Source: Siderastrea radians
Lineage: Eukaryota; Cnidaria; Anthozoa; Scleractinia; Rhizangiidae
Reading direction: 5' to 3'
Assembly: GCA_964017195.1 (NCBI GenBank)
Contig: OZ024896.1
Coordinates: 27,131,430-27,195,429, forward strand
Length of the DNA stretch: 64,000 bases
Position numbers and translations under genes: made by a program. Every line of letters starts with the position of its first letter. Position 1 is the stretch's first letter. Shown piece after piece: positions 1 to 47,151 of the stretch. The notes under the pieces are model-generated. The model made no database searches. It was not told the origin of the DNA and was given only the letters and a program-made list of their open reading frames with translations.

Positions 1-1700
1 ATTTAATTTTTCGTCGAAAATCGAATGGGTAAGAAAAGGTCATTTGAGTTCCAGGTTGTAAAAAAATACAAAATGCATACCGTCATTTCTGTTCCAATGA
101 TAATCTTCACTTTCCCAAGCAGGGTAAAAATTGCAAAAACGCTCCTTTCTCAGGCCAGGAACCAATTCAGCCACCAATATTTTTACCAGTACTTCTACAG
201 CCATTATAGCATTTCAATAAATTAGCAGAAATCAATTGAGTGCAATTTCGTTTTGTTTAAAGATAAAAGTGAACATGATGACATCACTAGTTGATTGTAC
301 CAGTAATCATTCGCAAGCAAGTGCAACTAAGGATTTACAAAGCAAGTCATGACTGAAAATACTATCAAGACTGCACAGGGTTTAAGCAAAAAAAATAAGA
401 TCCCAGATAAACTGAGAAAATTTTTGGAAGATCTTTGATTGACGCTCGTAATACTAAGAATGCGAGCGCCCCTCTCAGTTTTTGGTGATATTTCGTATAT
501 CTTTCCTTCCAGCAAAGGTTGATGACCTCCTCGTTCCCAGGCGCGAAGATTTCGCCGGATCGCCGGAGCAGCTTGGGAACGAAGCGCGTAAGGCACTTTG
601 GCAAAGAGCACAGTAATAACTTGTAGAGCTTGGCTTATAAGTCATCAGGTTATCTCCAAATGCTCCCCTTCAATAATCTTCAAGGGATGTATACATTATT
701 TTCCTGAGCTGTGAATCACCACAATTTTGGGGGCGAACCGCAAAATGCACCCTGTTTGTTTGTTCCCGTGAGCCTTGAGCCGTTAAATTCGATAATTACT
801 CTTCGTGAAGCGACGCTAGAGATTTCAATTTGTTGTGTGACTTTGTAACCTGAAAGCACAGGTTTCTTGGTCACCCTATGTTCCGGCGGGCAAATAAGTA
901 ACCTCTGTGCAAAACCGTCCGAATTCCTGTCGTGCATGCGCAACATTCGTCATACGCATCGTCACTTAAGCATCGTCGCTTTCTGTCTTGCAGAGTTTGC
1001 GCGCGCACTCATGCGTCAGCTTGACCAGAACTCCGTGAAAACGTTTCTTGCACTGTATTTATTTCAGCGTTACTTTAAACTCAGGATAAATCTCAGTAAA
1101 ATAAGCCTATAACGATTTCTGCCTGTAAAAAAGAAAAACAAAAGTAACTGTCGCGTACAACAGGTCAGCTAGCGTATCGAAGCGCGCGCATTTTTTGACA
1201 ACATTCACAGCATGGGTAAGCTTTAAACCGGTTGAGAGCAGGTTAGAAACCAGTATTTTTAATTGATTCGTCCAAAAACCCTGGACGGCGGCAGATCAGA
1301 GAATCAGACGGTTTTGCGCAGAGGTTACTCGTTCGTCCGCCGGAACATAGGGCGATCAAGAAACCTCTGCTTGCAGGGTAGTGATATTTGTAGCCTTCAA
1401 CCAAAACTTTCTGAAAAATGATGAATGTGACTTTATGTAAAAGATTGATTCATTTTCCACGAAAAAAGACATACCATTCCTTTACCACCTTTGCAACTGT
1501 CATTTAACCTTTAATAACATGAACTTTTTATTCTTAACATAACTTTTTGTATTTTACTTCATGATGTGCATGCCGTTAGTGTATTCGGATAATACAATTG
1601 CTGGAGGTTTGTAGTGCGCTTGAAAAAGTTAAGTTTTAGGTAAAATTGCAAAACATTCAATCCCTCACCATTACTCTATACTTTTTTGTCATTAATTTAG
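1..1700. other. No recognised gene; 5' part of channel gene presumably upstream
   Basis: I see no coding exon here. The next exon (1701) starts inside a discoidin domain, so the signal peptide and the rest of that domain must lie upstream, either beyond the window or in an exon I failed to recognise. Short open frames near 330-610 and 870-1110 lack domain character or usable splice phase and look like repeat-derived sequence. Confidence 0.5.
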
Positions 1701-1839
1701 AATTTTACTGGAAACACTGACCGGGACACTGTTGTTAAACATGACCTAAGCCCACCAATCAGGGCACGTTATATCCGTTTTCGTCCAGTCACGTGGCATC
1801 ACCACATATCAATGAGAGTGGAGCTCTATGGCTGTCAAG
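1701..1839 (+). CDS. Exon: C-terminal part of F5/8 type C (discoidin) domain
   Basis: The exon follows an acceptor AG at 1699-1700 and ends before the donor GTAATG in phase 1. It encodes 46 residues including DTVVKHDLSPPIRARYIRF and then MRVELYGC. This is the closing half of a discoidin fold: a changing-partner strand, the I.ARYIR.. motif, and the final RVELYGC with its disulphide cysteine. Discoidin domains bind carbohydrate or phospholipid on cell surfaces. The front half of the domain was not found in the window. Confidence 0.85.
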
Positions 1840-4800
1840 GTAATGTACAAAGTTTGAGAGAAGAAAGACAAAAAGTTGAAAAATTTATTTTAAAATCAGG
1901 ACTTTTTCCAAGGTGTTCTACTGAAGTGGCCATTTACGGGCATCGTTATGGGTAATATACTGCCGGAAGCAACCCGGCGATGGACCAGCATCGATCCCAT
2001 CCACCCATCCAGCGGGAGTAGTAATACTCTAATTTGCCTCGTACTATAGAAACTGGGGATCCTGAGCTCCAGCCGTGTGGGTGTCCTGTGGCTCATGTCC
2101 AACTTTACCTATTCATATCACCTTTCCTTAATTATCTTTTATAGCGTGGCAATCCGCCGCTTTAAAAAGGAATAAAGGCCTGGGATCGAATTAGCTACGG
2201 ATTCCGCTCAACGTGCGAGCAATAAGTGCAAAAATTATTCACTGAAAAAATACTCATATCACGGTAACATTTTCAATGCTATCTGAAACACCTCACTTTA
2301 ATTCGCTTCTCCAAGTGACCCCGCGATGAAATTCTCAAGCATTCTCGAGAAAATTAATTCCCAGTCTCGTTAAAATATGCTAAATACGGGCGCCAACTTG
2401 TTTTGAACTGACATGAAGCGTTTTGTAATTAAAATATGGATAACATCACATCCAATTTTCTCTCTCGGGGTCAGCCCGGGAGCAAAAGTATCGATGAGTT
2501 CTCCTTATCTGTTCTGAAAATGTGACCGTACTGCAAGTATTTTTTGGGTGACTTAATTTTTGCACTTACTGCTCGAACGATCAACGGAAATCATCTTTAA
2601 ATGAAGTCATCGAGGTTCGAGTTTTCAAAAACGTCTCTTTACTAAAAGCTTAGTCATGTTAGTTAACCAAACAAAGTTTATAAATTGTCCATTTTTTTTC
2701 TATCCAACTGATGAGTACCAAATTTGGCAGAATTTCCTTTCTAGAATTTCCTTTATGGGATAATAATATAGATTAAACTGAAGCAATCAATTGATTTAAA
2801 GAACTCGTTCCCTGTCCTATACTCGTTTCTAAAGTTGCCAATGTATTTTTGTTTTTTTGGTTTTTTTAGAGTCATTAGGATTATTAAAACCGCCGACCAA
2901 CTTGACAGCAATGGATTCCACTTCTTCTTCATTCATAATAAGCTGGAGTCCGTATTATGGTGAAGCTACTTTGTTAGGCTACCGCGTGTTGGTGCTAAAC
3001 CAGGGACCCAGAGAAAGCAGGGTGAAACGTGCCATAGCGCAACTGGACGGCGAGCTGATAAGGAACTTTACAGTTGCTGCAAATGTTACATCGGTTGAAA
3101 TTGGAAATCTGTCGGCATTTGCCAAATACTGTGTTCGACTTAGTTTGATTGCGCAAGAGAGAAGTGGAGAACTCAGTGATTGTTACTATCTTTACACGGA
3201 GGAAAGTAAGTAGTTATGTTCAGGCGGGTATCCCGTCATGGGAGAAAATTATTTCGGAATTTTACTCGTTTAAGACTGGCGTAGTCGGTCTTAGCCATAT
3301 TAATAAATAAAAAAATTGGGTTTAAATATTAGTTTTATCATTTTTGTTATCTAGGAACTATAGTGTTTCTTTTGAGCAGCTGTCGAGTTTGTGTCTTCAA
3401 ATATCAAATAGATGCCTTCCCTCTGCGCCTTATCCTTTCTGAATTTGGTCACGTTTTCTGTTTGCTTGTTTGTTTGTTTGTTTGTTTGTTTGTTTGTTTG
3501 TTGATGCTTGTTGCATGTGTTTTCTCATTGCAACATTCAACTTCCAAAAGATTAGCTACCCCCACCCTAAGAACGTTTAATTTTTAATTTTAATTTTTAT
3601 TTTTTTTATATGTTTTCTTGCCTGTCAGCTCAGCTCACAGTACACTTAAATTTTATGTCCTATTATGCATTTTTCTGTGATTTTATAAATTATTTTGTTT
3701 CCACCCCATTTTCAGTCTCAATCAAAGCTCCAACCATCTTAGGAGCCCAGAAAATCAACTCCACATCCTTCAGCGTTTCCTGGGATCCAGTCCCTAGTGG
3801 CGGTCTGAGTGCACTGATCGTGGGATATCGCTTATCATACTATGATGCGAATGACCACAACAGCTCTCTGGCTATCACATACACGCTTACAAAGCTTACA
3901 AACAGCAGTCAATATGCTGCGATCCTTAGCGGTTTGCAAGTCTATTCAAACTACTGTGTTCAAGTTCGTGCGTTTACCAACGTAGAGGAGGGCCCCGCCA
4001 GTGAGTGCTTCTTCCTTGATGTCAAAAACGGTAAGACATCACCCGCTTTAACTCCCGACCTTTAAGGCATTCTTTTCAAGATAGTACACCAGTCATTGTA
4101 AGGCTAACGCATAAACAACTTACCTATTGATTGTAACGCTGTCCAACAAAATGTTTTGCATATACTGCAGGAGAACTAATTGCAGTACATGATCGCCCTG
4201 GCACAACAAACACCCGATCGTGTCATTTTTCAGACATTCATGCGCATTAGTTTCCAGTGTCACCCATACCGTGACAAATATTTCCTGGAGATGACATTAT
4301 CAGAATTATTTAACTTTTGCGAATGTTTGGTTTGTCCAACATTTGAACCTTTGCTGCTTTCTGCGGGAAAAAGGGCTAAAACGTAAAAGCAGAAAGCTTG
4401 TTAATTATCGTCAATTATATGTCACTGGGCAGCAAATCGTGTCATCATGTAACATCCTTCATGTGACACTTTTTGTACAATACCAGCACATATAAAACTA
4501 GTAAGGTTGAAAGTAAGAAAACGTGAGAGCAACCAAACAAGTGAGCGATTTTTAAGATCGCTTGCTACGATTTTTGCCTTCTTGCCTGCATGCCAGGCCT
4601 GTCTCCTTGCCGTAAGCAATTTTCTCTAGCGGTGAAATCTTGTATGAAATGCAAATTACTTTCGTAACGATCTGTAAATCGGAAATCTCTAATATAGAAA
4701 TAATAGCGTGCCTTGGTGGGTGATTCCTGTTTGTCGGCAACGAAGCAATTTGCAATTTCTGACAGCAAGTAAAACTAGTAACCAAAAACCGGGCAAAAAA

Positions 4801-7800
4801 CATTGCTTTTAAAAAATCAAAAGGCTCGGTAAGGATTGTGGGTGATTAATAGACGATTAAAGACCTAATAATGCGCCCTAACAAAATTTGCTTTTTTTAA
4901 CTCGGTAACCTCTTGCTGTTTTAAAGTAAAAGAGACGCGTAAGGGAATGATAATAACTGAGAACGTTTCAACTCTATTTGAACTTCATTTGGCCCTCTAG
5001 AAGTCACAGCGCTGCCCCCTCCAAGGTCTTCAGCTTACAGTGATGGCTCCTCGTACGTTTTAGTCCAATGGGAGCCTATAAGGGGTTTTTCAGAAGGTCT
5101 GCTTCAAGGATACTTCGTGTTCCTTCGAGATACAAATACTACAATTATTGCTGGATCGTGCAAGACAAATATCAGCGTGATATCCACTGGCTGTATACAG
5201 GTGGCTGCCTACACAAGAGAGGGCTTGGGGAACATCACGGGGTGTCTCCAGATACAAAAATGTGGGTGTGTTTTTTTCAGTTGGTCAAAACGTGATTCCT
5301 TGTTGCAATGACTGGGAACCTTCAAGCAGGCGGGTGACCTGAATATGGAAAATAAGGCGGATAGTATCAGTTTAACACCGGGCAACGGTTTTGCGTCATA
5401 TAAACTTTTAGAAGTAAAAGCGTGTTTTCAATTTGATTGCCAGTGATTACTAATTAAACTGCTGGCCTTAAACTCTGTGATTGTGACATCGCCTAGAATC
5501 GTTGGCAATCGTATAGAAAGTTAGTCTTCGAATACAGCCGCCTCTCCGCGCTCAGGCCGCTTGCTGCGTTCGGAGGGGCAAGCGCAGGCTAATGAAAAGC
5601 ATCCCTCAATAGAACATTAAAGGTTTTCTCATCAATCATCGACGATTGCGCCAACACCTGTACATGCTTTGTCATGTGATTGATTATCAAAAAAAAGGGG
5701 GAGTATAAAGTTTGTACATCAACACTAGCGCAAGTTTTGACTACATTCCTTCCTCAGCGCTCGCGACCGATGCATGACGCAACGTAACATTGCAAAATTT
5801 ATTACGTGCGCAGTAAAGATGTGTATAAACAATCAGCGCGAAGGTCCTTTAACTATTTATGCATTGGTCAATTCCAGCTGCGCCCATGCCCCCCCGGCAT
5901 AAGCCTTTTTTTTCTTGGATGGCAAATTCCCGGGGGTGGAGGCACTTAAGCTACCAAATGCACCGCGCTGGGGACGAAGGAAGAGGGCAAATACCCCGCC
6001 CCCAGGATCGTACGTCCCCAGTCATTGAACACTGCAGCAGTTTTTATTCGTTGCATAATGGTGCCACTTTCAGGATATTTTTCGTTTCTGTAGGTCTGCC
6101 TATCCGTCTTGTAATTGGTTAATAAAGTTAAAACCGCCAAGCAATGATATTGACTTCACAGAAAACGCTACCGATGATAGTTGATTCTCATTTTATTGTT
6201 ACTTATTATATTTTAAATAGTTCGCTAGTGAAAACATCTTGACACTATAAAATTGTCTGGACCAGTTGGTCAAAGCAGGGTTAAGCTAACCCAGGATTTG
6301 CATTAACTTTTAATTCCGATAAACTTTTAATTCCAGACGATACAGATTTCTGTAAATCTTTTTTGGCCTACATTTTTAAAACTTTGATTGCTTTCAAATA
6401 GTGACTTGAAATTTGCTGTAAAACCTGTTTTGAAATAAGAGAAACAGGGACTTCGGTTAAATTTTAATCCCAGGTTTGCGTTAACCAGCTTTCGAACAAC
6501 CGGGCCCTGTTGTATAAAAGTCATCTGTTGTGGATATTTTAATAATATGCAAAAGTAAATGATGATCCCTTTAAACGTGTTTAGAATTTAATAATCGATC
6601 GTGATAGTTTTAGAATCATCGCGGCTAAATTTTAATTATAAAATCCTTGATCCATGAAGCATACGTACGTCAATTCACGTTGATCGTTCCCGATAGTTCA
6701 AGTCATGCCTTGATTAGCAATGAAGAAATGCATAAAATCGAAAAAACCTCCACAAGTTTGTCCAGTCCTCAACTTTGACGGACGAGCCAATCTGCGACGA
6801 ACCGCTGGTCCTTTCCGATAAAATCCTCCGTGTTTGGATTTCAAATCGGAAACCATGTGCGTGTCAAAAGCCCGGGGGTAGCCCCGGGGTAGGCAAATGC
6901 TCGACCCCCGGGCCGCGCCAAATTTGCTAATGCCCCACCCCCGGGACAGGTAAGGTGCACAAATGCCTCGCAGTTGCCCGGGGGGGGGGATGGGCGCAGC
7001 TGGAATTGACTGATGCGTTAAGGTGTGACTGACAGAAAACTTTTGCAAGCATTACTATCGATTCGGACGGTCAGGTGGCAGGGAAGCAGTAACAATGCTT
7101 CAAGCTTTTGACTGTAACAGAGTCAAACTGTGCAATTTGTTCCTTTTTTGTATTTTTTAACAGTACTTAAAGACATCATTGCTCCTAAGATTAGTGCATC
7201 CATCAGAAAGACTATATCAACAATAGAAGTCAAGTGGGACCCACAGACATTTCAAGGTGTGAAGGGAGAGATTCTGGGTTATGAATTACTGTACGAGCTT
7301 GTGAGAGTCAGTGGAAATCCCAGGGATAATTCTGAGCTGAGAAAAGTTATCATATGCAGCAGTTTTGATAAGTATATTCTGACAAATCTTTCATCTTTCA
7401 CGCGATACAAGTTTCAGATGGCAGCAATTACTGCAAACGGTATTGGACAATACAGTGACCCCGTCTATGGAGGTAGGTAACACAACCGAACCAAAAGAAT
7501 TACGTCTGGGAACGTTGAAGCAATTTCGCATTTTTAAAAGTCGAATATCATACAGCCATATATCCCCGAAATCCCTAAAGTACTTCTGAGAAATTTTAAC
7601 CACCGAGGCTAAGAATGTGTTTGAATAACGGGAAGAACAACAAGACATCACATCTTTGATACACATTCGACGCACTTAAAAACTCTAAAACGATATAAAC
7701 ACTTAAAATTGCGGTATTCCGGTATATTGGAAACGTTGTAAGGAGAAACATAACAATGAAGTGCAGAGATTTCAAATGAATGTTACTGGTCTTTACGCTA

Positions 7801-10800
7801 ACGACGCTATGCTGAGGGTGTTAGGGTAGACAAAGTACCCGAAGACTCCTTAATTAACTCTAAGAACGAGTAGAACTTTTTCCACATTCCGCACGCGGTT
7901 ATCCCGCATGGCCGCGCGCTACCATCAAAGTAGGACATCCCGTGACGACTAACATGGAGTCGAAGAAGATGTGGGCTATTCCACTGGTTTTTACATGAAC
8001 AGTTTTACATTTTAGTAGTTCTCACATGGCCAATTTGACAATTTTATTTAGCAGACGGCTGACGAGGCTCGAGGAGCGAAATATATACCGGACCACCGCA
8101 ATTTTAACAGTGTTTATATCGTTTTAGAGTTTTAAGTGCGTCGAATGTGTATCAAAGACGTGATGTCTTTTTGTTCTTCCCATCCCTCAAAAACGAACCA
8201 CCATTATTCCATGTTGGCCTAAAAGGGTTCTTACAAATTTGATGTCTAATGGGAAATCACGCTATTTTGGTTTTAAAATAGGTTCTTAATTTTTGTAGTA
8301 GGAAATTGCTTGCTGCTGGTCAGAAAACAAATCCAATATGGATGTGGTTCCCGTGTGTTAGAAACGTTTATTGCACCTACTACGTCTACATTTTAAACAA
8401 ACGTAGACCAAGCTCTTGGTCCTAATAATAATAATAATAAACTTTATTAACGTGTCTTAAAACATCTAGCTTACACTAAAGTAAGCTAATTGGGGACACC
8501 TATCTATACCTATCTAAAGTAGTAAAAATATATAAAATATTACAATATATACAATATAAAATATAAAATATAATATCACATCAACCTATAGTGATGAAAA
8601 CCCCCAAATGTTCAGAAAATCAAAAGTCACTAATTACTACATAGAGGACAGTTGTGACATCCTTCCTCCAGTAACGCTTCGAGATTCTTTTTTCTAATAG
8701 TGTTCTTAAAACTATTTAACGAATTAGAATTTCTAATTTCTTTATCCAATTTGGACCAGAGCATCGGACCAAGGTACTGATTTACTTCAACCAACAACAG
8801 TTTCTATGTTTTTCCAAAGAAGAACCAGCCTGTTTCGATTGTCAGGTTAATGCAGAATTTTATATGTTTAGGGACTAAATGACAAATTTTAACCTACAGG
8901 TTCTTAATCCACTTGGTTAACTTCTAACAGTCGGGAAATTACTGTACTATTATCCACACTAATGGAATACTTTTCACCCTGACCTTTCACCCTTCTTTTC
9001 CTAGTGTTGAAAACTACTTGGAACAAAACCAAATTTGAAAAATCATCCATGGGGTTGACAGGCAACTAATGCTTTTGTAGGCATGTTGACATTTTTGACT
9101 CTGAGTATATAGAAGAAAAGGGTCTCGCTCGTAACTTTAGTACGGTGTTTTGAATTTTCGCTTCACACTCCAAGTGGTTTACCGTATTTTCCCGATTAAA
9201 CGCCGGGTCTAAAAGAGGACTGAAGTCGGGGAATAAGCCCCTCAGGCGTTTATTTGTGGTATAATGAATTTAAGGTGTAAGGGCAAGATACAGGATGTCA
9301 AGTAGAACGAATAAAAACCTTTTAAAAAAAATGGCGGGCCCAAATAAACCGCTGATTCAAACAAACGCCGGGTCCACCAGGCCAAGTTTGAAATAAAAGC
9401 CGGGGGAGTTTAATTGAGAAAATACGGTATTTGCGCTGATAGAGCCATAGCCTAATTAATGCTTTCAATGAAAGGACTCCAAGTACAGGGTGGGTTGCTG
9501 TTGATACAATAGCTCATAGTGATTATCCAATCACAAGGCGCAAGCAAGTGCCCAGTTGAGAATCATCTCCTGTGCATAGTCACCAGAGCGCTCGATCCAT
9601 TGCTGACCAAAGATATCAAGGGCTCTTAAGTCTTGAATATAGCAAACAGAACAAAAAATGCTAAACATTAAGTAAAAGTAATAAATATAAGTTATTGAGC
9701 TATATGTAGGTTCGCGTTGCAAAAATATTGGTCTTATTCTTTCGTGTAAGTAATAGGCCAAGCCGGAAACGAAGAAAGAAGAAATAACAGAACAAGTAGT
9801 CCAATATACGTTTTATTTGGGTGTCTTTTTCATACATTTGTCAATAGCATCTATTATATAACTTAAGATGAAATGGAAAGTGGTAAATTGCCCTCTGTCT
9901 TGAAGCTAACCCCAATCTCCTTTAGTATATGTTAGTATTGTTGTAAGAAACGTACCTGAATAGTGTAGTGTCGTAATTTAGTTTGATACTATAGGTATGT
10001 AGAATTGAATCTAGTTTTGTAAGTAGTGTATGATTGCAAATTTTTTTAAAAAATCTATATATGGCAAACGAGCCCTTCACAACACAAGTCAGTGAAATCA
10101 AAGCCGTGAGATGTCCGTATGGCAAAGTTCGCACCGTTCGGAGAACCAATCAGAATGAACCTATTCATCTGGGATCGGCTTAACCAGATTTTAAAGGCTT
10201 TATTGGAAATAACGTAGTTTTCAGAACTAATAAACGTTATCACTTTTATCTCTTCCAGAGACTTGTGCTTGTTCAAAATACATTACAGTTGCATCCAGCT
10301 CTCTGAATCTCCAAGACGCCAACACCGATGACCCCAACTATGATGCTATTGCCGCTGGGTTGAAAAAGGTCATCTCACAACTTGTAGTTGACTCGTGTGG
10401 TTACTGCGAAGAATTCGGCCAAACAAACCTTATCTACAGCAACGATAGCAGCTTGGAAGAGTTGGTGTTTCCCGTCACGAAGACATCATACGGACAGAGT
10501 GCATACAGCAAGTTTATACCGGTTATACGAGTTCCAGGGGTGGTTGTTATAACAAGGAAAAAAGAGCTGGGGATGATTTTGACGGAAGCGGCAAGTGGTT
10601 CAATTCTTCAATCTTGGCCAATTTTTGCTCTTACCATCATGATGGCCTTGCTAGCAGGAATTATCATCTGGTTCCTCGTAAGTTTAATAATGTCTTTAGT
10701 TTAACATACAACTAACTTCATAGACCATGATAAGAAAAATATAGGTACGTAATGCGTATGTCTTCCCGCTAAAAGTATCAACAACAAAACTTTATTTACA

Positions 10801-13800
10801 AGAAAAATCAATATACTACAAATACAGACTACCTGCAAATAGCGAAGCTAATTGAGGCAGGTAGTATGAATACGTGTCATTTACACTTAAATTACAATAC
10901 GAATACAAAAAGATTTTACAAAATAATAAATATGGTATAACAGAATAAATTACAATAATAACTTTAATTATATTTATCATGAGCAATAAGCTAGTGGTCT
11001 GTATTCCTTTTATTCCCACTAAAGAACACTAACCCAAACGAGATGTAACCCGTACTCCTACAGGTTACACGTGAAAGCTGATGAACTCAGTGAATAAAAG
11101 TTCATAATAAAGAGAAACCTCAGCATCAGGAGTTTTGGCGGCAATGTTGACGGCGACGCCACTACTTTGCATACTGTAAAATGTGGTTATAAATAAGCCC
11201 ATGTAGAAGACGCAAGTGTCATAAAGTCACAAGTGTAATAAGGTTTGGCCACAAATGTAATAAACTTTTCACAAATATCCAGAAACGTCAATGACACCTG
11301 TTATTCAAAGCTGATGTAGTCTTCATTCACAATCGCTCAAGTTATGCTATTTTACACCTTATTCCTCAAAGAACTCTCCAAAATGTAAATGACTGTAAAG
11401 CTATGACGCACAGCAGATGTTATTGTTTAGCTTAAAGGAGCTGTGTTACGATATTTAGCCAAATTCAGCCACTAGGACCTGGCCACCAAATTGAGCGAAA
11501 CCTAAAAATTGCCGAAAGGTTGAGGTGGCCGAACACAGTTTTCTTGTACCTATGCGTTATTTATCGTTATTTTTAAACCACTGGCAGTTGGGCAGCCAAA
11601 ATTGGCAAGGTGCAAGTTCAACTAAAGAAGATTGTATTTTGGTACGTTTTATTGGACTAGGTACCGTTACCATGGCAACACAGCTGGTAGTAAACCAGCT
11701 TCAAATAATGGGTTTGATTTATTTTCAGAAAATCCAGTCGTTAGATTTTTTCCATCATTTGTCTCTAGAAAACTCAGAAAAATACTTGCCTATTGACTTT
11801 GGTCTCGTGAAATTTTGACAGAGAGATCTTCTGTTATTTTGTGTTTTGCATTTTAACGTTTTCTGTCAGATTTCAATTTTTGTTTGCAGGCGAGCTAAGC
11901 GTGTTCCGAACTATTATTCTACCAAATTTCATGAAATTCTAACGAGCGGTTCCGTAGAAATCAGTGCATTTCCACTAAATCGTGCAGTCACAATTTTCTG
12001 GTTAACTGCGCATGCGCTGCATTTGGCAGGATTCTTGATCTTTTCTCGATCCATACAAACAATCCCAGAAAGGCAGGGTATTTTCCAAGAGTATTACCTT
12101 TAATACATTGAAAAACAAACGTTTTTGACACAACAAACTGTTTGATTGTTAAGACGGAAAAAACACTTGCACAATCTTCACTGAACAAAATGAAATGATC
12201 GCTGTACAGGCGCCAACAGGCCGCATGTTTGTTTCTCTCAAAACCTTGTGCGCGCGCACTTATTCACGTCAGCAGTACAAATCGTAGAGCGCGTGCAAAC
12301 TGTGTTCAGACACCGTAAAGAACACAACAAATACAAAAGAAGGCACGGATAGGCCAAATTGAAAGAGATTAACGGGGATTGCAATTGGGGTCTTGGAAAA
12401 CTGTTCAGCCTAACAGTGTTTCAAAGTTTATCTCTGTTGCTTGTAAATTTAAATATAACGCTCGGGATACATATTTCTTTGTCACGAAGCTGTGATTTTG
12501 TCATTTACAACTAATATCTTTGCTAACGTTAAGTTCCATAGCGAGTAAGGGCGAGTAATTGGAAAAACCAAACATATTGGACTGGACTGCCGTGACACAG
12601 CCTCTTTAAACGACAAAAACTGGGAATTCAAAAGAGTTCACCTTTGAACAAACAACTTCGAAACAAAAGATTGACCACTTCGATATGATAAATTAAAGAA
12701 GATAAACTAAAAAAGCTAGTTGCAATTCATAGTAGTTTAGTTTTTCAACACGAGCTACAGCGTGACTACTACAGCGTGACTGCTACAGCGTGACTACTAG
12801 CTTTGTTATCTTGGTAGTAAATTGTGCTCGTTTTAAACACAATACAGAAACCTGCTTTTGTCCAAACATAAGCTGGATAAAAGGCCAGTCTTTACCCTCG
12901 TATACTTGTTGTCTTCCAATGAATGTCAGATACGATAACAGAATGAAGAAAAACTATAACAAAAGTAACGTGAGAAAACTTTACAACAGTGTGCATAAAT
13001 ATTTGTTAAAAAGAAAGAGAAAAACCTTCATGATGCAATTGTTGAACTAAAGATGACAGAGGTGTCTGTCGAAACATGTTTTCTAAAGTCAAAACTGTGG
13101 TGCGTTTTCTTCAAATATCTGAGTATGTGTTTGTTTGCGTTTTTGTTAGGACTCCAAGACCAACCCTGATCACTTTCCACGTCAGTTCATAAAAGGGACC
13201 GGCCAAGGATTCTGGTGGTCATTCATTTCCATGACAACAGTCGGGTAAATACAGGTTTTAATCCTAAGATATAGCATTTTTGAGTGCAGTCACAACAAAA
13301 CTAAATTCTTCTCCAAAACGCTGTTTGTTATACTGATGGGTTATTGTACAGGTAAGAAAAGGACCTCAAAACTGAAAGGAAATCTATCAAGGAAATCTTT
13401 GGAAAAGGAAATGTATGTGTAATCAGATTATTAAAACAAAGACAGATGAGATAGAAATAGTTTAACAAGGATTTGAAGCCCCTACTGTGATAAGCTTGAA
13501 AAAGTTGGCTGTTACAAACATTAGCTGAAAACGTGCTATTTTAGGCATTAGTTATACTTGTACTGCTTTGCAAACTGAAGAAAGAACAGCTCTGAGTTCC
13601 ATTGATCCTGCTGTAATTTTTATCCTTGACATTGTTGTTTTTCTCTTCACTCTTTCCTCCTTGTTATTTTTCTTCTTATTATTACTGTTCTTATTATTGT
13701 TGTCATAAATTATTGTTGTTGTTGTTGCTATTCTTGTTGCTCCTGTTGTTATTAATTTGTTCGCGTTGTTAACGTTGTTCTTATCGTTTCGTACTTCTTT

Positions 13801-16800
13801 GTAGTTACGGTGACCTTTGTCCCAAGTCCATCCGAGCCAAAGCATTCGCGATAGTATGGTTCTTGGTTGGTCTGGTTATATTCTCTGTGTTTATTAGCGC
13901 TATAGCCTCCTTGCTGACCGTCACTTCAGTCAAGCATACTATTGGCTCATCAGGCGGAACAGACACAAAAATGGTAATAAACTTGCAATGAATTTACTTT
14001 TACTAACGCAGGCAGTTTATTACGATTGAAGATCATCAAAATGGTCCTTTGAAGTAACCTGTTCGACATCGTTGCGGAAAACCCGTGTTTTTGATCCTTT
14101 GCGTATGGACTGAAGCATCCTCGGAGACCCAGGGGCAGCTAGTCGGGACGACGGGATTTTCATGGGCGAAAGTTTACAACAAGAGCGGGAGAGCCCCTGG
14201 GCAGTTACTCTTACCGATCCAGTTCCAGAAGCGTTTGAATTCTCTCCTTCTGATTGGCCAGAAAAATATTTTTCTAGCCAATCAGCGAAGAGGAACAGCC
14301 GGGCGACTCTCATGCGCGAGGTTGTTTTCCTCATCGATCGCCGTAGTAGCGTGGCTCGTTCAACGGGAACATTTTTGAGAGAGCTTCAGAAAAATGATAA
14401 TAATAAATAAACGAAGTCGAAGAAATCGCAAACTGTAACGTGGCTGCAAGAAAACAAACACTTACAGGGAATTTTTCGCGCCGGATTTATCGAAGGTATC
14501 GCAAATTTTTAGAGCTAGCAACTTCCCCTTTCTCCAATGTAACTAATTATTTCTCCTTCTTCGTTGATCTTCGTCTGAAAATTTCCATCTCTGATGCACG
14601 GGCCACGCAACTATGTTGATCGAGAGCTAGTTCTCTCTAGTACGTGACATGACGTCGCATCGACCGTTAAGCAGAAAATTGCCTAGATCGGCCTCTAGAA
14701 GCTCGGAAAAGCAATAAAAACACAGCAAACACACAGCAGGTAATGTTTTTAAACTGTATTTCCATTTTAATGCATTTTCAGCGGAAAACCGCCGATTATT
14801 TTCGATCGAATTTCAGCTCCATACAAACACTCATATTACGCTTTGGTTAACTGTGGTTAGCACGCTTGATCGACATAGTTGCGTGGCCGGTGCATCGGAG
14901 ATTCTCGTGGAAAGTTTCAGACGTAGTTCAACGAACAAGGAGAAATAATTAGTAACATCGTTTACTCGAGTAGCTATTAGCCTCATGCAACGCTTGAGAA
15001 AGGGGAAGTCGTTAGCTCTAAAAATTTACGATACCTTCGATAAGTCCGCCGTGAAAAATCCCGGTGAGTGTTTGTTGTTTTCCGGCCACGTTATAGTTTG
15101 CAATTTCTTCGACTTCGTTTATTTATTTAGTATTTATTATTTCTCCTCAAAAATGTTCCCGTTGAACAGGCCACGCTACTACGGCGACCGATGAGGAAAA
15201 CAACCTCGTGTAAGAAGACATGAGAGTTGCCCGGCTGTTCCTCTTCGCTGATTAACCAGAAAAATATTTTTCTGGCCAATCAGAAGGAGAGAATTCAAAC
15301 GCTTCTGGAACTGGATCAGTAAGAGTAACTGCCCAGGGGCTCTCCTGCTCTTGTTGTAAACTTTCGCCCGTGAAAATCCCGTCGTCCCGACTAGCTGCCC
15401 CTGGGTCTCCGAGGATGGGACTGGAGAAGCCAATCGGTCATTTTTTATCTCCAAAAATCTCTACTTAGGGTAGCGCTTTTCGGTAGCACTTTTGAGTGGC
15501 TTTTTTAGTGAATTGAGGAAAGCCAACTGTATTAACAAAAACCGCATAAAAACAATTGAAAAAATATAGGTATGGACGGAAAAACGCTTAAAAAGTGTTT
15601 GTACAAAGGACGTTTCTATTCCTTTATCGCGAGTAGCCCAATGGCCTTGATAATAACTTAGTGCTGGGTTACTTTCTTGTATTATAAATTAAGGTCGTAT
15701 TTGATTACGACAAATTGTTTTCGGTTGATTGGGTTAGTTCTTTCTTTCGTGATCTATTGGAAAAATCTTTTTCGGATGCTTTGGTTGAGCATATTGTGCA
15801 ATAGCTATCAACCGTTTGAACCAATAACGGTTGAAAAGTGTTCTGTGGGGAGAATGGAACCCAGTCTTCCAAAACTTGTTGACGTTGACACGGTTAGTTA
15901 CAATAGAACACGACCTAAGTAACATACAAATCGCACCGCAGGTTGCTGTTGTGGCTGATTCACCTGAACAACGAGTTGCACTTGGCTCTCTCAGTGGTAA
16001 ACTCAGCATAGGTAAGATAAATATAAGGGACGGACCATTAGAAAAGTGATGGGTGGGGTGGGGAAAAAACCAAAAAAAAAATTCGTGTAATGGAAAATGT
16101 CCGAAAAAAAAATTCATGCAAGGGAAAATGTCCGGAAAAAATTCATGCACAAGATAGGCCTCATTTTGATATGAAACCATAATCCGTTCTGCCAAAGTGC
16201 TCAAGTAGTGTCTCCAGTGTTTAAAAAATTGGAAATTTTTTGGGGCTCTGCCAGGATGCTATAAAATATTGTTTTCATAATTAATATTTCTTTTATCGGG
16301 AGTGGGATACCTTCGCCTGGAACAAATTTTTTGTTGTTTTTATAGTCATAGTCATGCAGTTGAACCCCGTTATTTTGAACCGTCAGGGGAAACAAAAAAA
16401 GTTTGAAATAGCGGGAGTTCAAAATAACCGATAGTAAATGAATGAAGGGCAAATCCAGTGGGATCATTCTCACTACTATCTTATTACCTTCAGTTAGTGA
16501 ATTCTGATACATGTATGTACCCTGTTGTTGTTCAACTTTATTCCTGGTTTAATTTTTAGTGTCCTTTATTCCTGGGTATGGTGATGTCCGATAATGACTT
16601 TAAACCAAAGGGAAAAAATAAAAACAAGGATAAAATTGAACCACAACATGATACAATGGATGATTTCGGTTAGTGAATCGAAGCAGCTGTCACTAGCCAC
16701 TTGGCTAGTTAGCAAAATAATTACTCTCGAGCCCTGACAGGGCTTTTGGGCTCCCTATAATTTTTATTACAGCACAACCCTGCATTTTAAAGCGAGCATT

Positions 16801-19534
16801 ATTAAAAAGTGTTTTGTAATAAAATAAACTTAAAAATGTAAAGTAACGTAACAGTACAAGCTATGTATTTAGTAAAACAAAGTTGCGTTGGTTTTAATTA
16901 ATTCAATAGCAAATTGTGCATAAGGAAAACATTTTCTCAAAAAAAAAAACTTCATGCATAGGGCTGTAGCCAAAAAAAAAATTCTTGCACTGGAAATGGG
17001 CCAAAAAAAAAATTCTGGCTGGCAAAAAATCCCCCATCCCCCCCATCACTTTTCTAATGGTCCGTCCCTAAATGTTGATAGAACAATGCTAAAAGCGTTA
17101 GAACGTGTTTATCATTCCATTGTAGGTACGTAGGTGTAGGTACGTATGTTTTTCCGAGTCACTTAAGTTTCACTGGCTCGCTGACTGACTGACTGACTGA
17201 CTGACTGACTGACTGACTGACTGATTGACTGGCTGGTTGGCTGACTGACTGACTGACTAACTGACTGACTGACTGACTGATTGACTGACTGACTGATTGA
17301 CTGGCTGGTTGGCTGACTGACTGACTGACTAACTGACTGACTGATTAACTGACTGAACGAACGAACGAACGAACGAACGATCGATCGATCGAATTACTTA
17401 ACAGACGAAACGCACGCAAACATTTCCATGATTTTAGCAGAAAGTTGATCATCTTATAGTTGTGATTCAGTTACAAAGTGCCTATCACCCGTATCGACAC
17501 TTACTTAACAGCAAACTGTATTTTGTCGGTAAGAAACAAAGGGAGGACCATCCAGTAGCCCTTACTGTTGAAAGCACTCCAGACGTTCATGACAAGTACT
17601 CATTTTGAATTTTATCTTTATCTTAAGTATAATAGCTTTAGCACTCTATTTAAGGTTCGACATTCTCGGATGTAGAGCAGCTGGTCGATGCTCTGAAGAC
17701 GGAAAGAGTTGACTCTATATTAGTGGACATGTACACACCGGTCAAACGCAAGGACTTGTTCAATGGCTCCTGGTTTGAAGTCGCCAAGCTCCTAGAGACC
17801 GAGATCTCTCATGGCGTTCTTCTGCAAGGAAGTGCTGTTAAAATGGCTGACGAATTGTCAAGAATGATCGTCGCTAAAAATGTCCAGACGGAGTATCTAC
17901 AGGATGGAAGTGAAGATCAAGGATATGAGGCGAGATTAAATTACTATTGCCACTTTATCATTGGGAAATAATTATAACTGGACTGCCTTAGACATGGTCC
18001 TTTTGTGGCTTTACCATTAAACAAAACTGCCAAAACGGTGGCCTGTAAGGAGCAGAGAATTCCAGCTCGCAGTAGCAATGGCTAATCGAGGCGGGCGGTA
18101 ATGCAACAATCAAATTGGTGAACTGTTCTTTACTCAATACAAAGATTTTTCTCGTTTGCCAGTTTCCTATTCTCCTAAGACAATTCTCAAAAGAATATCT
18201 TACAAAAGTAAATGTAATAATATATGTCTATTTCAAAAAACAAAATGAAAAACGCCGCAGGAAAATGTGGCAACGCAGGTTTTATTTAAAAAGAAAAACA
18301 AAGAATTTGAACCAGGTTAAAAGGCCCAAGGCTTCACTCCGGGAGTGTCAATACGAGGTCTAATTTTTTTCTTTGAAATATTTTGAAACCTTATCCATGG
18401 ATTTTTCATGACCCATACAGGACGTAAATAATGACGAAGAGCCTGTGACATTCTTTGAGCCCAGCAGTCCCTACTATCGCACAACTATGTACGCCACCTT
18501 AACTGCTTTGGCTGTGTTCCTGTGCTGTGGAGTTTTGTACCAGATATCATGCTACAAAAGAGAAAGAACTGGACCGGACAACAGTAAGTTCATAACAGCT
18601 CAGTATGGGGATTGGCGGGGGTGGGGGGGGGGGGGAGTATGGGTGGGATTGGGGTTGGAATAGGATGTACTGGTCAACAAATATCTCATCGCACTTTCGA
18701 CCCCTTAGGTTGTTGGCTCAATTCCTGGGAAGCTAGCGAAGCTATCCTAAGTGATAAATCCATTTCTTGTTATAGACAAGAAACTGCTCCTGCACATTGT
18801 TTTTCTCCAATCAGGTGTGTGCACGTGACAAGTGATTTTGTAATATAGTTTCACACATCCATACACTTTGCCGAAGACTGTTTTGCAGTCCCCAGCCACA
18901 GCTCCCACATGGCTTATGTGAAGCTAAGGCTTAAAGAAGCCTTCGGGTTTGCCACGGGAGTAAATGGCTGGTTACGGGTTCTTCCAGCCTGACAAGCAGC
19001 TGACCGAGGCTACTAGTCAGCGGCTCATGCGGTTGTACGCATGAGTAAGGTTCTTTTCTGGCCAACTAGCGGAGATTGTGCAATGTGTCCATTGCTATGA
19101 ATGTTTTATTTACATGGGGCAATGTAAACAGGAGTTGGTGAGTAAATAGAATTCATTTCATTGGTTACATAAATTTTATAATATGTTTACTCAAGGGTTA
19201 GCTGTCTCCTCGCCCCATTATTCCCCCGAACCCAACACTTCAGACTATCGCCTAATAGCCTCAACGCGAAAAAAATCTATTTCTGATCTATTTATTCTAA
19301 CACAGCGTTGAACCTTCTTTTGCAGGAATCAGACAAAACTCTGTTTCACCAGAGAGCCCAGACGCAAGAGATGCCATGGAAATAGCTGTGGAGGAATTTT
19401 ACAATTCCTTTAGTGCAACATACAAAGAGTTGCGACGAAAATGCAAGAATGAGCTAATACTGCTGGCAAAACTGAAACAGCAAGGGTTGAAAAGCTCGAG
19501 GTTTCATAACAGAGCCTGGGAATCGAATGTATAA
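1701..19534 (+). CDS. Discoidin/FN3 receptor fused to iGluR-like potassium channel core (5' partial, 12 exons)
   Basis: Twelve exons join in one frame to 921 residues plus stop: 1701-1839, 2870-3205, 3716-4030, 5001-5267, 7164-7472, 10259-10677, 13150-13244, 13805-13973, 15942-16011, 17655-17929, 18421-18583, 19326-19534. Residues 1-46 end an F5/8C domain; 47-455 are four FN3 domains; 456-573 an S1-like half; 574-595 helix 1; 625-630 the filter TVGYGD; about 640-664 helix 2; about 665-815 an S2-like half; 821-842 helix 3; then a 79-residue tail. S1-M-P-M-S2-M is the iGluR layout, and TVGYGD is the filter of K+ channels and of bacterial GluR0. The segment SAIASLLTVTS resembles the iGluR M3 signature. 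Inference: a plasma-membrane K+-selective channel with a large extracellular adhesive or ligand-binding region. The ligand is unknown. The N-terminus lies outside the window. An unusual leak or two-pore channel is the alternative, but the split S1/S2 and third helix argue against it. Confidence 0.85.
1896..2105 (-). repeat. Probable dispersed repeat in intron 1
   Basis: An uninterrupted frame of 68 codons on the minus strand without any domain. Its base composition differs from the surrounding intron and includes a CCATCC-rich stretch. I think it is a fragment of a dispersed element, but I found no second copy in the window. Confidence 0.3.
2870..3205 (+). CDS. Exon: fibronectin type III domain 1
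   Basis: A complete FN3 domain in one exon with phase 1 at both ends. The acceptor follows a T-rich tract and the donor is GTAAGT. It opens with PPTNLTAMDSTSSSFIISW, the usual A and B strands with the conserved tryptophan. Strand F carries YCVRLSLIA, followed by a G-strand cysteine in SDCYYLY. The two cysteines could form a domain-internal disulphide. Confidence 0.9.
3464..3502 (+). repeat. (TTTG)n microsatellite
   Basis: About nine uninterrupted TTTG units in the intron between FN3 exons 1 and 2. A simple repeat with no other structure around it. Confidence 0.95.
3716..4030 (+). CDS. Exon: fibronectin type III domain 2
   Basis: Single-exon FN3 domain, phase 1 on both sides, donor GTAAGA. 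Landmarks are APTILGAQKINSTSFSVSW in strands A-B, GYRLSYYD in strand C, LQVYSNYCVQVRAFT in strands E-F and ASECFFLDV in strand G. It has the same F/G cysteine pair as the preceding domain, and several N-glycosylation sequons (for example NSS). Confidence 0.9.
5001..5267 (+). CDS. Exon: fibronectin type III domain 3
   Basis: The shortest FN3 exon, 89 residues. It starts VTALPPPRSSAYSDGSS, has the strand B tryptophan in VLVQWEP, strand C in LQGYFVFLRD and strand F in GCIQVAAYTREG. The end is less certain than for its neighbours: a GT at 5268 gives the phase 1 junction that fits the next exon, while the GT at 5266 gives the wrong phase. Confidence 0.8.
5861..7016. mobile_element. Inverted pair of C/G-rich repeat ends
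   Basis: 5861-5887 and 6990-7016 are inverted repeats of 27 bases with two mismatches, each ending in a run of C or G. Both carry CAATTCCAGCTGCGCCCAT or its complement. Inside each end is a long stretch with further CCCGGG-type runs. This is either one 1.16-kb element or two copies of one MITE family in opposite orientation. It lies in the intron between FN3 exons 3 and 4. Confidence 0.7.
7164..7472 (+). CDS. Exon: fibronectin type III domain 4
   Basis: Single-exon FN3 domain, phase 1 on both sides, donor GTAGGT. It reads PKISASIRKTISTIEVKW, then GEILGYELLYELV, then SSFTRYKFQMAAITANGIG and a short G strand. Unlike domains 1-3 it has no F/G cysteine pair. It is the last extracellular domain before the channel core. 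Confidence 0.9.
7630..8181. mobile_element. MITE with about 100-bp terminal inverted repeats
   Basis: 7630-7728 and 8082-8181 are near-perfect reverse complements. Both include the core CTAAAACGATATAAAC or its complement and end in GGGAAGAAC or its complement. The interior is about 350 bases and non-coding. It lies in the intron downstream of FN3 exon 4. Confidence 0.85.
9181..9428. mobile_element. Small MITE, about 250 bp
   Basis: Starts ACCGTATTTTCCCGATTAAA and ends with a diverged reverse complement (GAGAAAATACGGT). No coding capacity. It is intronic and shows two internal CGCCGGGTC copies. Confidence 0.75.
10259..10677 (+). CDS. Exon: S1-like half-domain and first membrane helix
   Basis: The exon enters in phase 1 and ends in phase 0 at GTAAGT. 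After a cysteine-containing linker it encodes about 118 residues resembling, at low similarity, the S1 half of an iGluR ligand-binding domain. The best part is YSKFIPVIRVPGVVVITRK, where an iGluR has its 'Pf...g..ilv.k' segment just before M1. The last 22 residues start SWPIFALTIMMALLAGII and form a clear membrane helix. I cannot identify the ligand-binding residues. Confidence 0.8.
11520..11965 (+). repeat. Dispersed repeat, copy 1
   Basis: Reads as the reverse complement of 22080-22565, with scattered substitutions and small indels. Shared landmarks are ACCATGGCAACA, TTTTCAGAAAATCCAGTC and TTGCATTTT.ACGTTTTCTG. Its open frames carry no recognisable domain, so I call it non-coding or decayed. 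It lies in the intron before the pore exon. Confidence 0.75.
13150..13244 (+). CDS. Exon: pore helix and first half of the potassium filter
   Basis: Encodes DSKTNPDHFPRQFIKGTGQ followed by the pore helix GFWWSFISMTTV, and ends two bases into the first filter glycine. The aromatic WW before the threonine pair is typical of potassium channel pore helices. The donor is GTAAAT, phase 2. Confidence 0.9.
13640..13800 (+). repeat. TTATTG/TTGTTG-rich simple repeat
   Basis: Pyrimidine-rich tract of interrupted TTATTA and GTTGTT units that runs up to the acceptor of the filter exon at 13805. Part of it probably serves as the polypyrimidine tract. Confidence 0.8.
13805..13973 (+). CDS. Exon: rest of filter (GYGD) and pore-lining helix
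   Basis: The exon completes the glycine codon split by the intron, giving TVGYGD, then LCPKSIRAK and a long hydrophobic helix (AFAIVWFLVGLVIFSVF). It ends SAIASLLTVTS, which aligns with the end of the iGluR M3 helix rather than with a classical potassium channel. Phase 0 exit at GTAATA. A pyrimidine- and TTG-rich repeat tract runs right up to its acceptor. Confidence 0.92.
14116..15417. mobile_element. Foldback transposon, 1.3 kb, long inverted arms, 9-bp target duplication
   Basis: 14116 to about 14620 and about 14860 to 15417 are inverted copies of each other, leaving only about 240 bases of unique interior. The ends read CATCCTCGGAGACCCAGG and its complement. Flanks are GGACTGAAG (14107-14115) and GGACTGGAG (15418-15426), a 9-base duplication with one mismatch. 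Long inverted repeats with a 9-base duplication are known from Mutator-like elements. No transposase is encoded. The element sits in the intron between the pore helix and the S2 domain. Confidence 0.85.
15942..16011 (+). CDS. Exon: start of S2-like half-domain
   Basis: A 70-base exon, phase 0 to phase 1, encoding VAVVADSPEQRVALGSLSGK and three more residues. An upstream acceptor CAG and the donor GTAAGA support it. It lies where the S2 half of an iGluR ligand-binding domain begins. It is supported by phase agreement with both neighbours. Confidence 0.75.
16027..17068. mobile_element. Non-autonomous element with TAA target duplication (Harbinger-like)
   Basis: Ends GGGACGGACCATTAGAAAAG and the exact complement, bounded by TAA at 16024-16026 and 17069-17071. 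Sub-terminal A-rich units (AAAAAAATTC.TGCA) are repeated near both ends in opposite orientation. A 3-base TAA duplication is typical of PIF/Harbinger elements. I saw no transposase. Confidence 0.8.
17168..17395 (+). repeat. (GACT)n array passing into GAAC and GATC units
   Basis: Long tetranucleotide array of GACT with variants (GATT, GGCT), duplicated in a block of about 55 bases, then CGAA and CGAT units. It is about 260 bases upstream of the S2 exon and purely simple sequence. Confidence 0.95.
17655..17929 (+). CDS. Exon: main part of S2-like half-domain
   Basis: Encodes STFSDVEQLVDALKTERVDS, then ILVDMYTPV, then a helix-rich stretch, GVLLQGSAVKMADELSRMI and YLQDGSEDQGYE. The order of a serine-led helix start, an 'ALKT..VDSILVD' strand and a late 'GVLL.GSA.K' strand fits the S2 half of periplasmic-binding-like domains. 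No phase-compatible GT donor exists. GAG followed by GCGAGA gives the only junction that keeps the next exon open, so a GC-AG intron is proposed. Confidence 0.75.
18421..18583 (+). CDS. Exon: third membrane helix
   Basis: Phase 0 entry after a CAG at 18418-18420, phase 1 exit at GTAAGT. Acidic start (DVNNDEEPVTFFEPSSP), then a membrane helix from TMYATLTALAVFLCCGVLYQ, then basic KRER on the cytoplasmic side. This corresponds to iGluR M4. Its presence separates the protein from two-helix potassium channels. Confidence 0.85.
19326..19534 (+). CDS. Exon: cytoplasmic tail and stop
   Basis: Phase 1 entry after TTTTGCAG. About 69 residues: a serine/proline segment (RQNSVSPESPDARDAMEI), then a charged helical stretch (YKELRRKCKNELILLAKLKQ) and a TAA stop at 19532-19534. 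The tail has no recognised domain. Its helix could be a short coiled coil. Confidence 0.85.
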
Positions 19535-47059: not shown

Positions 47060-47151
47060 AGCCAATAGGAAACGCGAACGATGAAAACTCACTAGTGAAA
47101 AAACGTCGTTCGCCCAATCACAAACGCGAACGACGAAAACTCACTAGTGAA
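47060..47151 (+). repeat. Short direct duplication in recombinase leader
   Basis: CCAAT..AAACGCGAACGA.GAAAACTCACTAGTGAA occurs twice, about 52 bases apart, just upstream of the recombinase frame. Confidence 0.85.

What the first reader, a model, noticed from the sequence alone, without database searches (positions are those of the whole stretch)
1701..19534. iGluR-like channel core with a potassium filter, joined to a discoidin/FN3 ectodomain
The exons give S1-helix-pore-helix-S2-helix, the iGluR order, with TVGYGD in the pore and SAIASLLTVTS where iGluRs have their M3 signature. Potassium-selective glutamate receptor-like channels are known from bacteria (GluR0) and a rotifer (AvGluR1). Here the usual amino-terminal domain is replaced by an F5/8C domain and four FN3 domains, as in adhesion receptors. 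Such a protein could couple surface or matrix recognition directly to K+ flux. I know of no functional description of this combination.
Basis: partly seen in the sequence, partly recalled or inferred. Interest (0 to 1): 0.88.

Follow-up and report, generated by a model that had tools for sequence, protein, structure and literature searches.

The report
Coral adhesion receptor with potassium pore
This coral gene appears to encode a glutamate-receptor-shaped potassium channel whose outer part has been replaced by adhesion-type domains and whose ligand pocket lacks the residue needed to hold glutamate, pointing to a little-noticed family of cnidarian receptors.

Summary
Twelve exons (1701-19534, + strand) join in phase into 919 aa: the last third of an F5/8C domain, three clear FN3 domains and a degenerate one, S1-M1-P(TVGYGD)-M3-S2-M4, and a cytoplasmic helix. 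The gene's 5' end was not found. A Stylophora protein of unnamed function is its nearest relative (66% identity in the core); Acropora, Montipora, Oculina, Porites, Nematostella and Hydractinia have the same core behind other ectodomains (FN3, F5/8C, TSP1, C-lectin, CUB+Ig, PA14). AlphaFold models of two relatives fold S1+S2 into a clamshell that overlays GluR0, AMPA and NMDA receptors; S2 alone is homologous to bacterial GluR0-like S2. The S1 arginine that holds the ligand carboxylate is absent in 13 of 13 adhesion-type rows (window included), kept in 5 of 5 ectodomain-free coral and 13 of 13 bacterial rows; the S2 aspartate is kept in all these 31 (six further metagenome rows differ). So: an iGluR/GluR0-type K+ channel core turned orphan receptor with shuffled ectodomains. 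Selectivity, ligand and adhesion gating are untested. Eight paper searches listed no description.

The parts
1701..1839 (+). exon 1 of the model: C-terminal third of an F5/8C (discoidin) domain; ends in phase 1
   Evidence: Pfam F5_F8_type_C 38.9 bits, profile 86-127 of 127; 77% identical to Stylophora P0003 residues 104-150
2870..3205 (+). exon 2: FN3 domain, symmetric phase 1-1 exon
   Evidence: fn3 40.7 bits; phases; P0003 51%, P0004 58%
3716..4030 (+). exon 3: FN3 domain, symmetric phase 1-1 exon, no clear one-to-one partner in Stylophora
   Evidence: fn3 46.6 bits; phases; only weak hits (E 0.004) in P0003
5001..5261 (+). exon 4: degenerate FN3, symmetric phase 1-1 exon; the matching segment is present or absent in Stylophora isoforms
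   Evidence: fn3 14.6 bits, below cut-off 25; P0003 48%, P0004 64%; isoform X1 has 85 extra aa here, residues 322-406
7164..7472 (+). exon 5: membrane-proximal FN3, symmetric phase 1-1 exon
   Evidence: fn3 39.0 bits; P0003 52%
10259..10677 (+). exon 6: CxC linker, S1 lobe with CGxC, and M1
   Evidence: P0003 54%, P0004 65%; S1 and M1 elements in models of relatives
13150..13244 (+). exon 7: M1-P linker and pore helix, ending in TTVG
   Evidence: P0003 76% over 13144-13245; Ion_trans_2 and Lig_chan span it
13805..13973 (+). exon 8: rest of the filter (GYGD) and M3 (ISAIASLLTVTS)
   Evidence: P0003 74%; Lig_chan match ends here
15942..16011 (+). exon 9: first strand and helix of S2 (VAVVADSPEQR)
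   Evidence: P0004 71% over 15915-16016; joins 17655 directly by comparison with P0003 and P0004
17655..17929 (+). exon 10: bulk of S2, with the conserved aspartate (LVDMY) and an NGS sequon; donor reads GC
   Evidence: P0003 65%, P0004 72%; donor site
18421..18583 (+). exon 11: M4 and basic KRER after it
   Evidence: P0003 68%; M4 helix in models of relatives
19326..19534 (+). exon 12: conserved amphipathic cytoplasmic helix (VEEFY...) and stop
   Evidence: P0003 52%, P0004 62%; helix in models of relatives; helical periodicity

Best explanation
The gene encodes one subunit of a (presumably tetrameric) channel of the iGluR/GluR0 fold. Shown by sequence or by predicted fold of relatives: S1 and S2 form a two-lobed clamshell; M1-P-M3 is a K+-channel-type pore with TVGYGD; M4 and a conserved cytoplasmic helix follow; adhesion-type domains on phase 1-1 exons stand where iGluRs have their amino-terminal domain. 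Inferred: the ectodomain is outside, so the pore loop enters from the cytoplasm, inverted relative to ordinary K+ channels, as reported for GluR0. Closing of the clamshell pulls on M3 and opens a K+-selective pore, so that activation hyperpolarises the cell (an inhibitory ionotropic receptor). Because the S1 arginine is lost while the S2 aspartate and Ser/Thr are kept, the ligand is probably not glutamate bound in the classical way; it may be another small amine-bearing molecule, or the clamshell may be set by the ectodomain. The F5/8C and FN3 part most likely places or clusters the channel at a cell-cell or cell-matrix contact. Exon shuffling of class 1-1 modules explains why cnidarian relatives have other domains in front of the same core.
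Against: No expression, current, ligand or localisation data. The two models are of relatives, not of the window protein (the spliced window protein was not submitted); the alignment behind the better one (A6) contains bacterial GluR0-like rows; pTM is only 0.36 (P0003) and 0.58 (P0016). Foldseek lists only iGluR chains in the 50 rows shown for the core, E 1.3e-10 to 4.1e-9, but with TM-scores by query length of 0.26-0.42 and rmsd 8.9-16.4 A, so the placement of clamshell against membrane part is not reproduced as a whole. Lig_chan passes its Pfam cut-off in only 5 of 13 adhesion-type sequences (window, P0003, P0011, P0112, P0017); 8 are below or unlisted. S1 does not match bacterial S1 directly (E 0.38); the link runs through the ectodomain-free coral proteins, whose own S1 match to bacteria is weak (E 0.013). 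The loop that should carry the arginine is gappy in the alignment, and some relatives have an arginine nearby. The intron after 17929 would need a GC donor. Sequence search of the PDB with the core lists ordinary K+ channels in the rows shown, because the pore dominates.
Confidence: 0.62

Rival explanations
1. An amino-acid-gated K+ receptor like GluR0 or AvGluR1: some amino acid still binds in the clamshell by another basic residue, and the ectodomain is only a spacer or sorting signal.
For: S2 aspartate and Ser/Thr kept in 13 of 13 adhesion-type rows; the predicted clamshell of P0016 overlays glutamate-bound GluR0; ectodomain-free coral relatives keep the arginine in 5 of 5, so an amino-acid-gated ancestor is likely.
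Against: No arginine lies between FP and FIPV in the S1 segment of the window protein (sequence); no basic residue is conserved at that column in the family alignment.
Confidence: 0.22
2. A silent or structural subunit: the core has become a non-conducting or accessory part and the protein serves mainly as an adhesion receptor, or works only with partner subunits.
For: The ligand arginine is lost; ectodomains differ between lineages; one Nematostella relative (P0111) has SVGYGD in place of TVGYGD.
Against: The pore is well kept: TxGYGD in 12 of 13 adhesion-type sequences, window included, and W, G and filter residues are invariant in A2. A dead pore should drift.
Confidence: 0.1
3. Two neighbouring genes: an adhesion protein (exons 1-5) and a channel (exons 6-12) read together by mistake.
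For: No cDNA of this species was at hand; exons 5 and 6 are 2.8 kb apart.
Against: Relatives from several species join FN3 and core in one protein; P0005 and P0006 come from contigs of 3,136 and 3,862 bases that hold FN3 and pore together; in P0003, P0005 and P0006, for example, the last FN3 leads straight into the CxC of S1; phases fit.
Confidence: 0.04
4. An ordinary (non-iGluR) K+ channel pore with unrelated flanking domains.
For: PDB sequence hits shown are K+ channels over the pore; Lig_chan is below cut-off in 8 of 13 adhesion-type sequences.
Against: S2 alone matches GluR0-like S2; Lig_chan above cut-off in the window protein; predicted S1+S2 clamshell in two relatives.
Confidence: 0.02

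Closest known systems
GluR0 (Synechocystis, Nostoc) and bacterial SBP_bac_3-Lig_chan-Ion_trans_2 proteins
   Same: S1-M1-P-M3-S2 order, TVGYGD filter, M3 ending in S-x-LTV, S2 with conserved D; predicted clamshell of P0016 overlays 2pyy and 1ii5; inverted pore in GluR0 (PMC13099474, section 6)
   Different: GluR0 has no amino-terminal domain and no M4 (PMC6385376, passage); bacterial rows keep the S1 arginine (13 of 13), which the coral protein lacks
AvGluR1 (rotifer Adineta vaga)
   Same: animal iGluR-type protein with a K+ filter (PMC12332018 and PMC12226733, passages; the original paper is not held)
   Different: gated by glutamate and other amino acids and of ordinary iGluR architecture according to those passages; no F5/8C or FN3 known to me (recalled). 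Its sequence was not compared here
Animal iGluRs (AMPA, kainate, delta, NMDA, epsilon)
   Same: S1-M1-M2-M3-S2-M4 order with M4 and extracellular clamshell; AMPA and NMDA receptor structures overlay the models
   Different: K+-type filter instead of Q/R/N site, GluR0-type M3 end instead of SYTANLAAF (motif recalled), adhesion modules instead of the LIVBP-like amino-terminal domain, no S1 arginine
Ectodomain-free coral channels P0020, P0021, P0023-P0025 (Oculina, Pocillopora, Stylophora; about 480 aa)
   Same: same core with M4; S1 profile match
   Different: no adhesion domains found in the one scanned, P0020; S1 arginine kept 5 of 5
Receptor phosphatases (PTPRF, PTPRQ)
   Same: FN3 stalks; databases name two relatives so (P0008, P0022)
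   Different: no tyrosine phosphatase domain was found in either; the names look like FN3-driven errors

Membership tests
iGluR / GluR0 superfamily | S1 and S2 form one two-lobed clamshell split by the pore | tested here: met
   models of two relatives overlay GluR0 ligand cores, GluA2 and an NMDA receptor chain; S2-only profile match. Prediction only, and on relatives
iGluR / GluR0 superfamily | M1-P-M3 pore of Lig_chan type | tested here: met
   window protein Lig_chan 37.0 bits over cut-off 30.8; 5 of 13 adhesion-type sequences pass
iGluR / GluR0 superfamily | ligand-binding arginine in S1 | tested here: not met
   0 of 13 adhesion-type rows incl. window; 5 of 5 ectodomain-free coral and 13 of 13 bacterial rows have it. 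Lost also in some members elsewhere, such as many insect IRs (recalled), so this bars 'amino acid receptor', not the fold
iGluR / GluR0 superfamily | acidic residue in S2 that holds the ligand amine | tested here: met
   Asp 13 of 13 adhesion-type rows
K+-selective iGluRs (GluR0, AvGluR1) | TxGYG filter | tested here: met
   TTVGYGD across exons 7/8; invariant GYGD in A2; TxGYGD 12 of 13
K+-selective iGluRs (GluR0, AvGluR1) | measured K+ selectivity and ligand gating | not testable with these tools
   needs recordings
Eukaryotic iGluRs | M4 after S2 | tested here: met
   helix 874-908 in the P0003 model, matching exon 18421-18583
Eukaryotic iGluRs (AMPA/kainate/delta/NMDA/epsilon) | LIVBP-like amino-terminal domain | tested here: not met
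   F5/8C and FN3 instead in the part held; the extreme N-terminus was not found in the window, but Stylophora P0003 shows no such domain
Eukaryotic iGluRs (AMPA/kainate/delta/NMDA/epsilon) | place inside one of the animal iGluR clades | not tested
   no animal iGluR sequences were in the tree; iGluRs of usual length (about 900 aa, recalled) lie outside the length range
FN3/F5-8C adhesion receptors | FN3 array with discoidin domain, extracellular | tested here: met
   complete F5/8C (88.0 bits) and TSP1 in Stylophora. Location outside the cell is inferred

The most novel reading that the evidence does not exclude
Cnidarians have a whole class of inhibitory ionotropic receptors that are not transmitter-gated: a GluR0-like K+ channel core that lost amino-acid binding and was placed, by shuffling of class 1-1 exons, behind discoidin, FN3, TSP1, lectin, CUB/Ig or PA14 modules, so that contact with a neighbour cell, prey, symbiont or matrix, carried through the invariant CxC...CxxC cysteines at the ectodomain-to-S1 junction, sets the clamshell and opens an inverted K+ pore.
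Probability: 0.25. Interest if true: 0.9.

Novelty: new variant of a known kind. Interest (0 to 1): 0.72.

Why it matters
K+-selective iGluRs in animals are known to me, and in the passages read, from a single rotifer protein. Here is a family with the same filter in corals, a sea anemone and a hydrozoan, with GluR0-like cores, an added M4, and adhesion-type ectodomains, in which the classical ligand arginine has been lost. It bears on two open questions: how K+-filter and cation-type iGluRs are related, and how cnidarians, where glutamate is not considered a major synaptic transmitter (PMC12226733, passage), use fast receptor channels. If it works as proposed it turns recognition directly into hyperpolarisation. 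The family may have been overlooked because gene models skip the pore exons (Desmophyllum P0004 and P0009) or are named after FN3 domains as phosphatases (P0008, P0022).

Tried and rejected
Extra exon at 17460-17528: it kept the frame in my first model, but Stylophora and Desmophyllum run straight from the end of exon 9 to the next S2 exon, so I dropped it. Searches were run with this 942-aa version or a part of it; Pfam was repeated on the corrected 919 aa with the same families; two searches were not repeated.

A TSP1 exon between exons 1 and 2, as in Stylophora, and the N-terminal two thirds of F5/8C upstream of 1701: tblastn found nothing convincing in 1-2869. A second copy of the gene in the window: no hit with E under 0.1 outside 1600-19600 from ten relatives.

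PDB sequence searches with the core show only K+ channels among the 60 rows listed of 385 and 421; the bacterial profile finds GluR0 and GluA2, the ectodomain-free coral profile K+ channels and GluN1. Foldseek and VIA rows for the full-length model are mostly FN3 structures, so a core was folded separately. Its VIA list mixes iGluRs and periplasmic binding proteins at tied Z. AvGluR1 did not appear in the rows shown; that excludes nothing.

Coiled coil at the C-terminus: the averaged hydropathy of 12 family segments peaks at 3.6-3.7 residues, the period of an amphipathic helix; 12 of 5,000 position shuffles reach it. A coiled coil is not shown.

Rows dropped or edited: P0004 and P0009 (no pore) were left out of A2 and of the tree; P0008 and P0009 were not in A2. 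The P0012 row of A2 was typed without two stretches (20 and 78 aa) that looked like gene-model duplicates (checked; isoform P0110 lacks both), and the P0011 row without its last 69 aa. A2 was used.

Own-genome search did not complete, so species, copy number and the upstream part stay unknown. Paper searches listed no paper on such a protein; only four papers were opened, and most subscription journals are missing.

Full report
What is in the window. The + strand between 1701 and 19534 holds twelve exons that splice in consistent phase to 919 aa and a stop. Ten of eleven introns are GT-AG; the one after 17929 would be GC-AG, and that join is supported by the Desmophyllum protein, which aligns across it without a gap to speak of. 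In order the protein has the last third of an F5/8C domain, four FN3 units of which one is degenerate, S1, M1, a pore helix with TTVGYGD split over exons 7 and 8, M3 ending in ISAIASLLTVTS, S2, M4 and a conserved amphipathic tail. Lig_chan, Ion_trans_2, fn3 and F5_F8_type_C all pass Pfam's cut-offs. The match to coral relatives is far above shuffled controls (142 and 193 bits against at most 24.6 and 27.7 in 50 triplet shuffles). The start of the gene was not found in 1-1700.

Relatives. A search with the core found 15 proteins at E up to 0.001; 12 of them cover 48-100% of the query, the other three 7-15%. A profile search gave 98 and a third search, with a Nematostella protein, 4, the query among them. 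Each search scored only about 8,000 candidates sharing most words, within a length range, so absence from other animals is not shown. Stylophora LOC111323926 has the same order plus TSP1, with a complete F5/8C (88.0 bits), and is the window protein's nearest row in a 37-row tree (66% identity over 433 columns, pair support 100/99). The same core stands behind C-lectin, F5/8C and FN3 in Montipora, CUB and Ig in Hydractinia, TSP1 or PA14 and FN3 in Nematostella, and FN3 arrays in Acropora, Oculina and Porites. In the tree the coral and Nematostella adhesion-type rows form one weakly supported group (84/90), and Hydractinia, Porites P0018 and P0010 another (95/94).

Modular ectodomain. Exons 2-5, one per FN3, all begin and end in phase 1, and exon 6, where the core begins, also starts in phase 1. 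Stylophora isoform X1 differs from X4 by one 85-aa segment that matches exon 4. Symmetric class 1-1 exons are the usual material of exon shuffling (recalled, Patthy's rule), which fits the different domains in front of one core.

Homology beyond the pore. The cnidarian core profile and 34 bacterial GluR0-like proteins align with probability 99.9% from the end of S1 into S2. With the pore cut out, S2 alone aligns with bacterial S2 (93%, E 3.4e-7) and with S2 of ectodomain-free coral proteins (96%, E 2e-9); S1 aligns with S1 of the latter (88%, E 3e-6), but not with bacterial S1 (E 0.38), and the ectodomain-free S1 itself matches bacterial S1 weakly (E 0.013). The bacterial profile finds GluR0 and GluA2 in the PDB. 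Lig_chan passes its cut-off in 5 of 13 adhesion-type sequences.

Ligand site. In a 37-row alignment the S1 arginine is present in 13 of 13 bacterial and 5 of 5 ectodomain-free coral rows and in 0 of 13 adhesion-type rows (window included; P0010, whose ectodomain is cut, counted here). The S2 aspartate is present in all 31 of these rows. Six metagenome rows of unknown origin have arginine in 1 of 6 and aspartate in 2 of 6. The alignment in this loop is gappy, but the window protein has no arginine at all between FP and FIPV. Hence canonical glutamate binding is unlikely. Four cysteines, CxC before S1 and CxxC in S1, are invariant in the eleven rows, in the window and in six further relatives; what they do is open.

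How it probably works. Extracellular placement of the FN3 and S1 part (adhesion modules; all 14 sequons in predicted outside parts; basic residues after M4) makes the pore inverted, as reported for GluR0 from PhoA fusions (PMC13099474, section 6). A K+ pore coupled to an AMPA-type clamshell is known to work from an engineered chimera (PMC6385376 and PMC12332018, passages). So the likely output is ligand- or contact-controlled K+ current and hyperpolarisation. Which ligand, and whether the ectodomain gates or only places the channel, is not known.

Novelty. Eight paper searches listed nothing on such a protein. A broad 2025 iGluR phylogeny (PMC12226733; passages and the first of two parts of section 6 read) speaks of cnidarian AKDF and NMDA receptors and of the rotifer K+ receptor, but in what I read not of a cnidarian K+-filter class. 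I file it as a new variant of a known kind: iGluR/GluR0 fold yes, amino-acid receptor probably not, ectodomain new to me.

Noticed in passing
14116-15417: A large imperfect palindrome (five nested pairs of inverted arms, 88-96% complementary; the outermost 199 nt) sits in the intron between exons 8 and 9; looks like a foldback-type mobile element.
   Followed up: partly
25310-26320 and 55759-56937 (- strand): Two class A GPCR open frames that appear intronless, 7tm_1 155 and 106 bits.
   Followed up: partly
47062-48565 (+ strand): Open frame 47062-48156 with DUF3504 (70.8 bits) and QRICH1-like similarity (28.7 bits, just below its cut-off of 30.8), possibly continued in another frame at 48104-48565 (not scanned); perhaps a decayed or domesticated Crypton-type recombinase (Crypton link recalled).
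   Followed up: partly
34760-35254 and 40973-41284 (+ strand): Probable exons of a cytochrome-b5-reductase-like gene: Oxidored-like N-terminus (46.9 bits) and NAD_binding_1 (52.9 bits).
   Followed up: partly
about 17170-17390: Long CTGA-type tetranucleotide repeat shortly before the S2 exon at 17655 (seen).
   Followed up: no
Desmophyllum P0004 and P0009 (OS493_030877 and OS493_030876): Consecutive locus tags in the same genome, both with the core but without the pore in their gene models; probably tandem genes with pore exons missed.
   Followed up: partly
P0026-P0032 (metagenome proteins): A distinct clade (100/100 for the six of seven included) of K+-filter GluR-like channels, mostly 440-500 aa, of unknown organism, with arginine in 1 of 6 and aspartate in 2 of 6.
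   Followed up: partly
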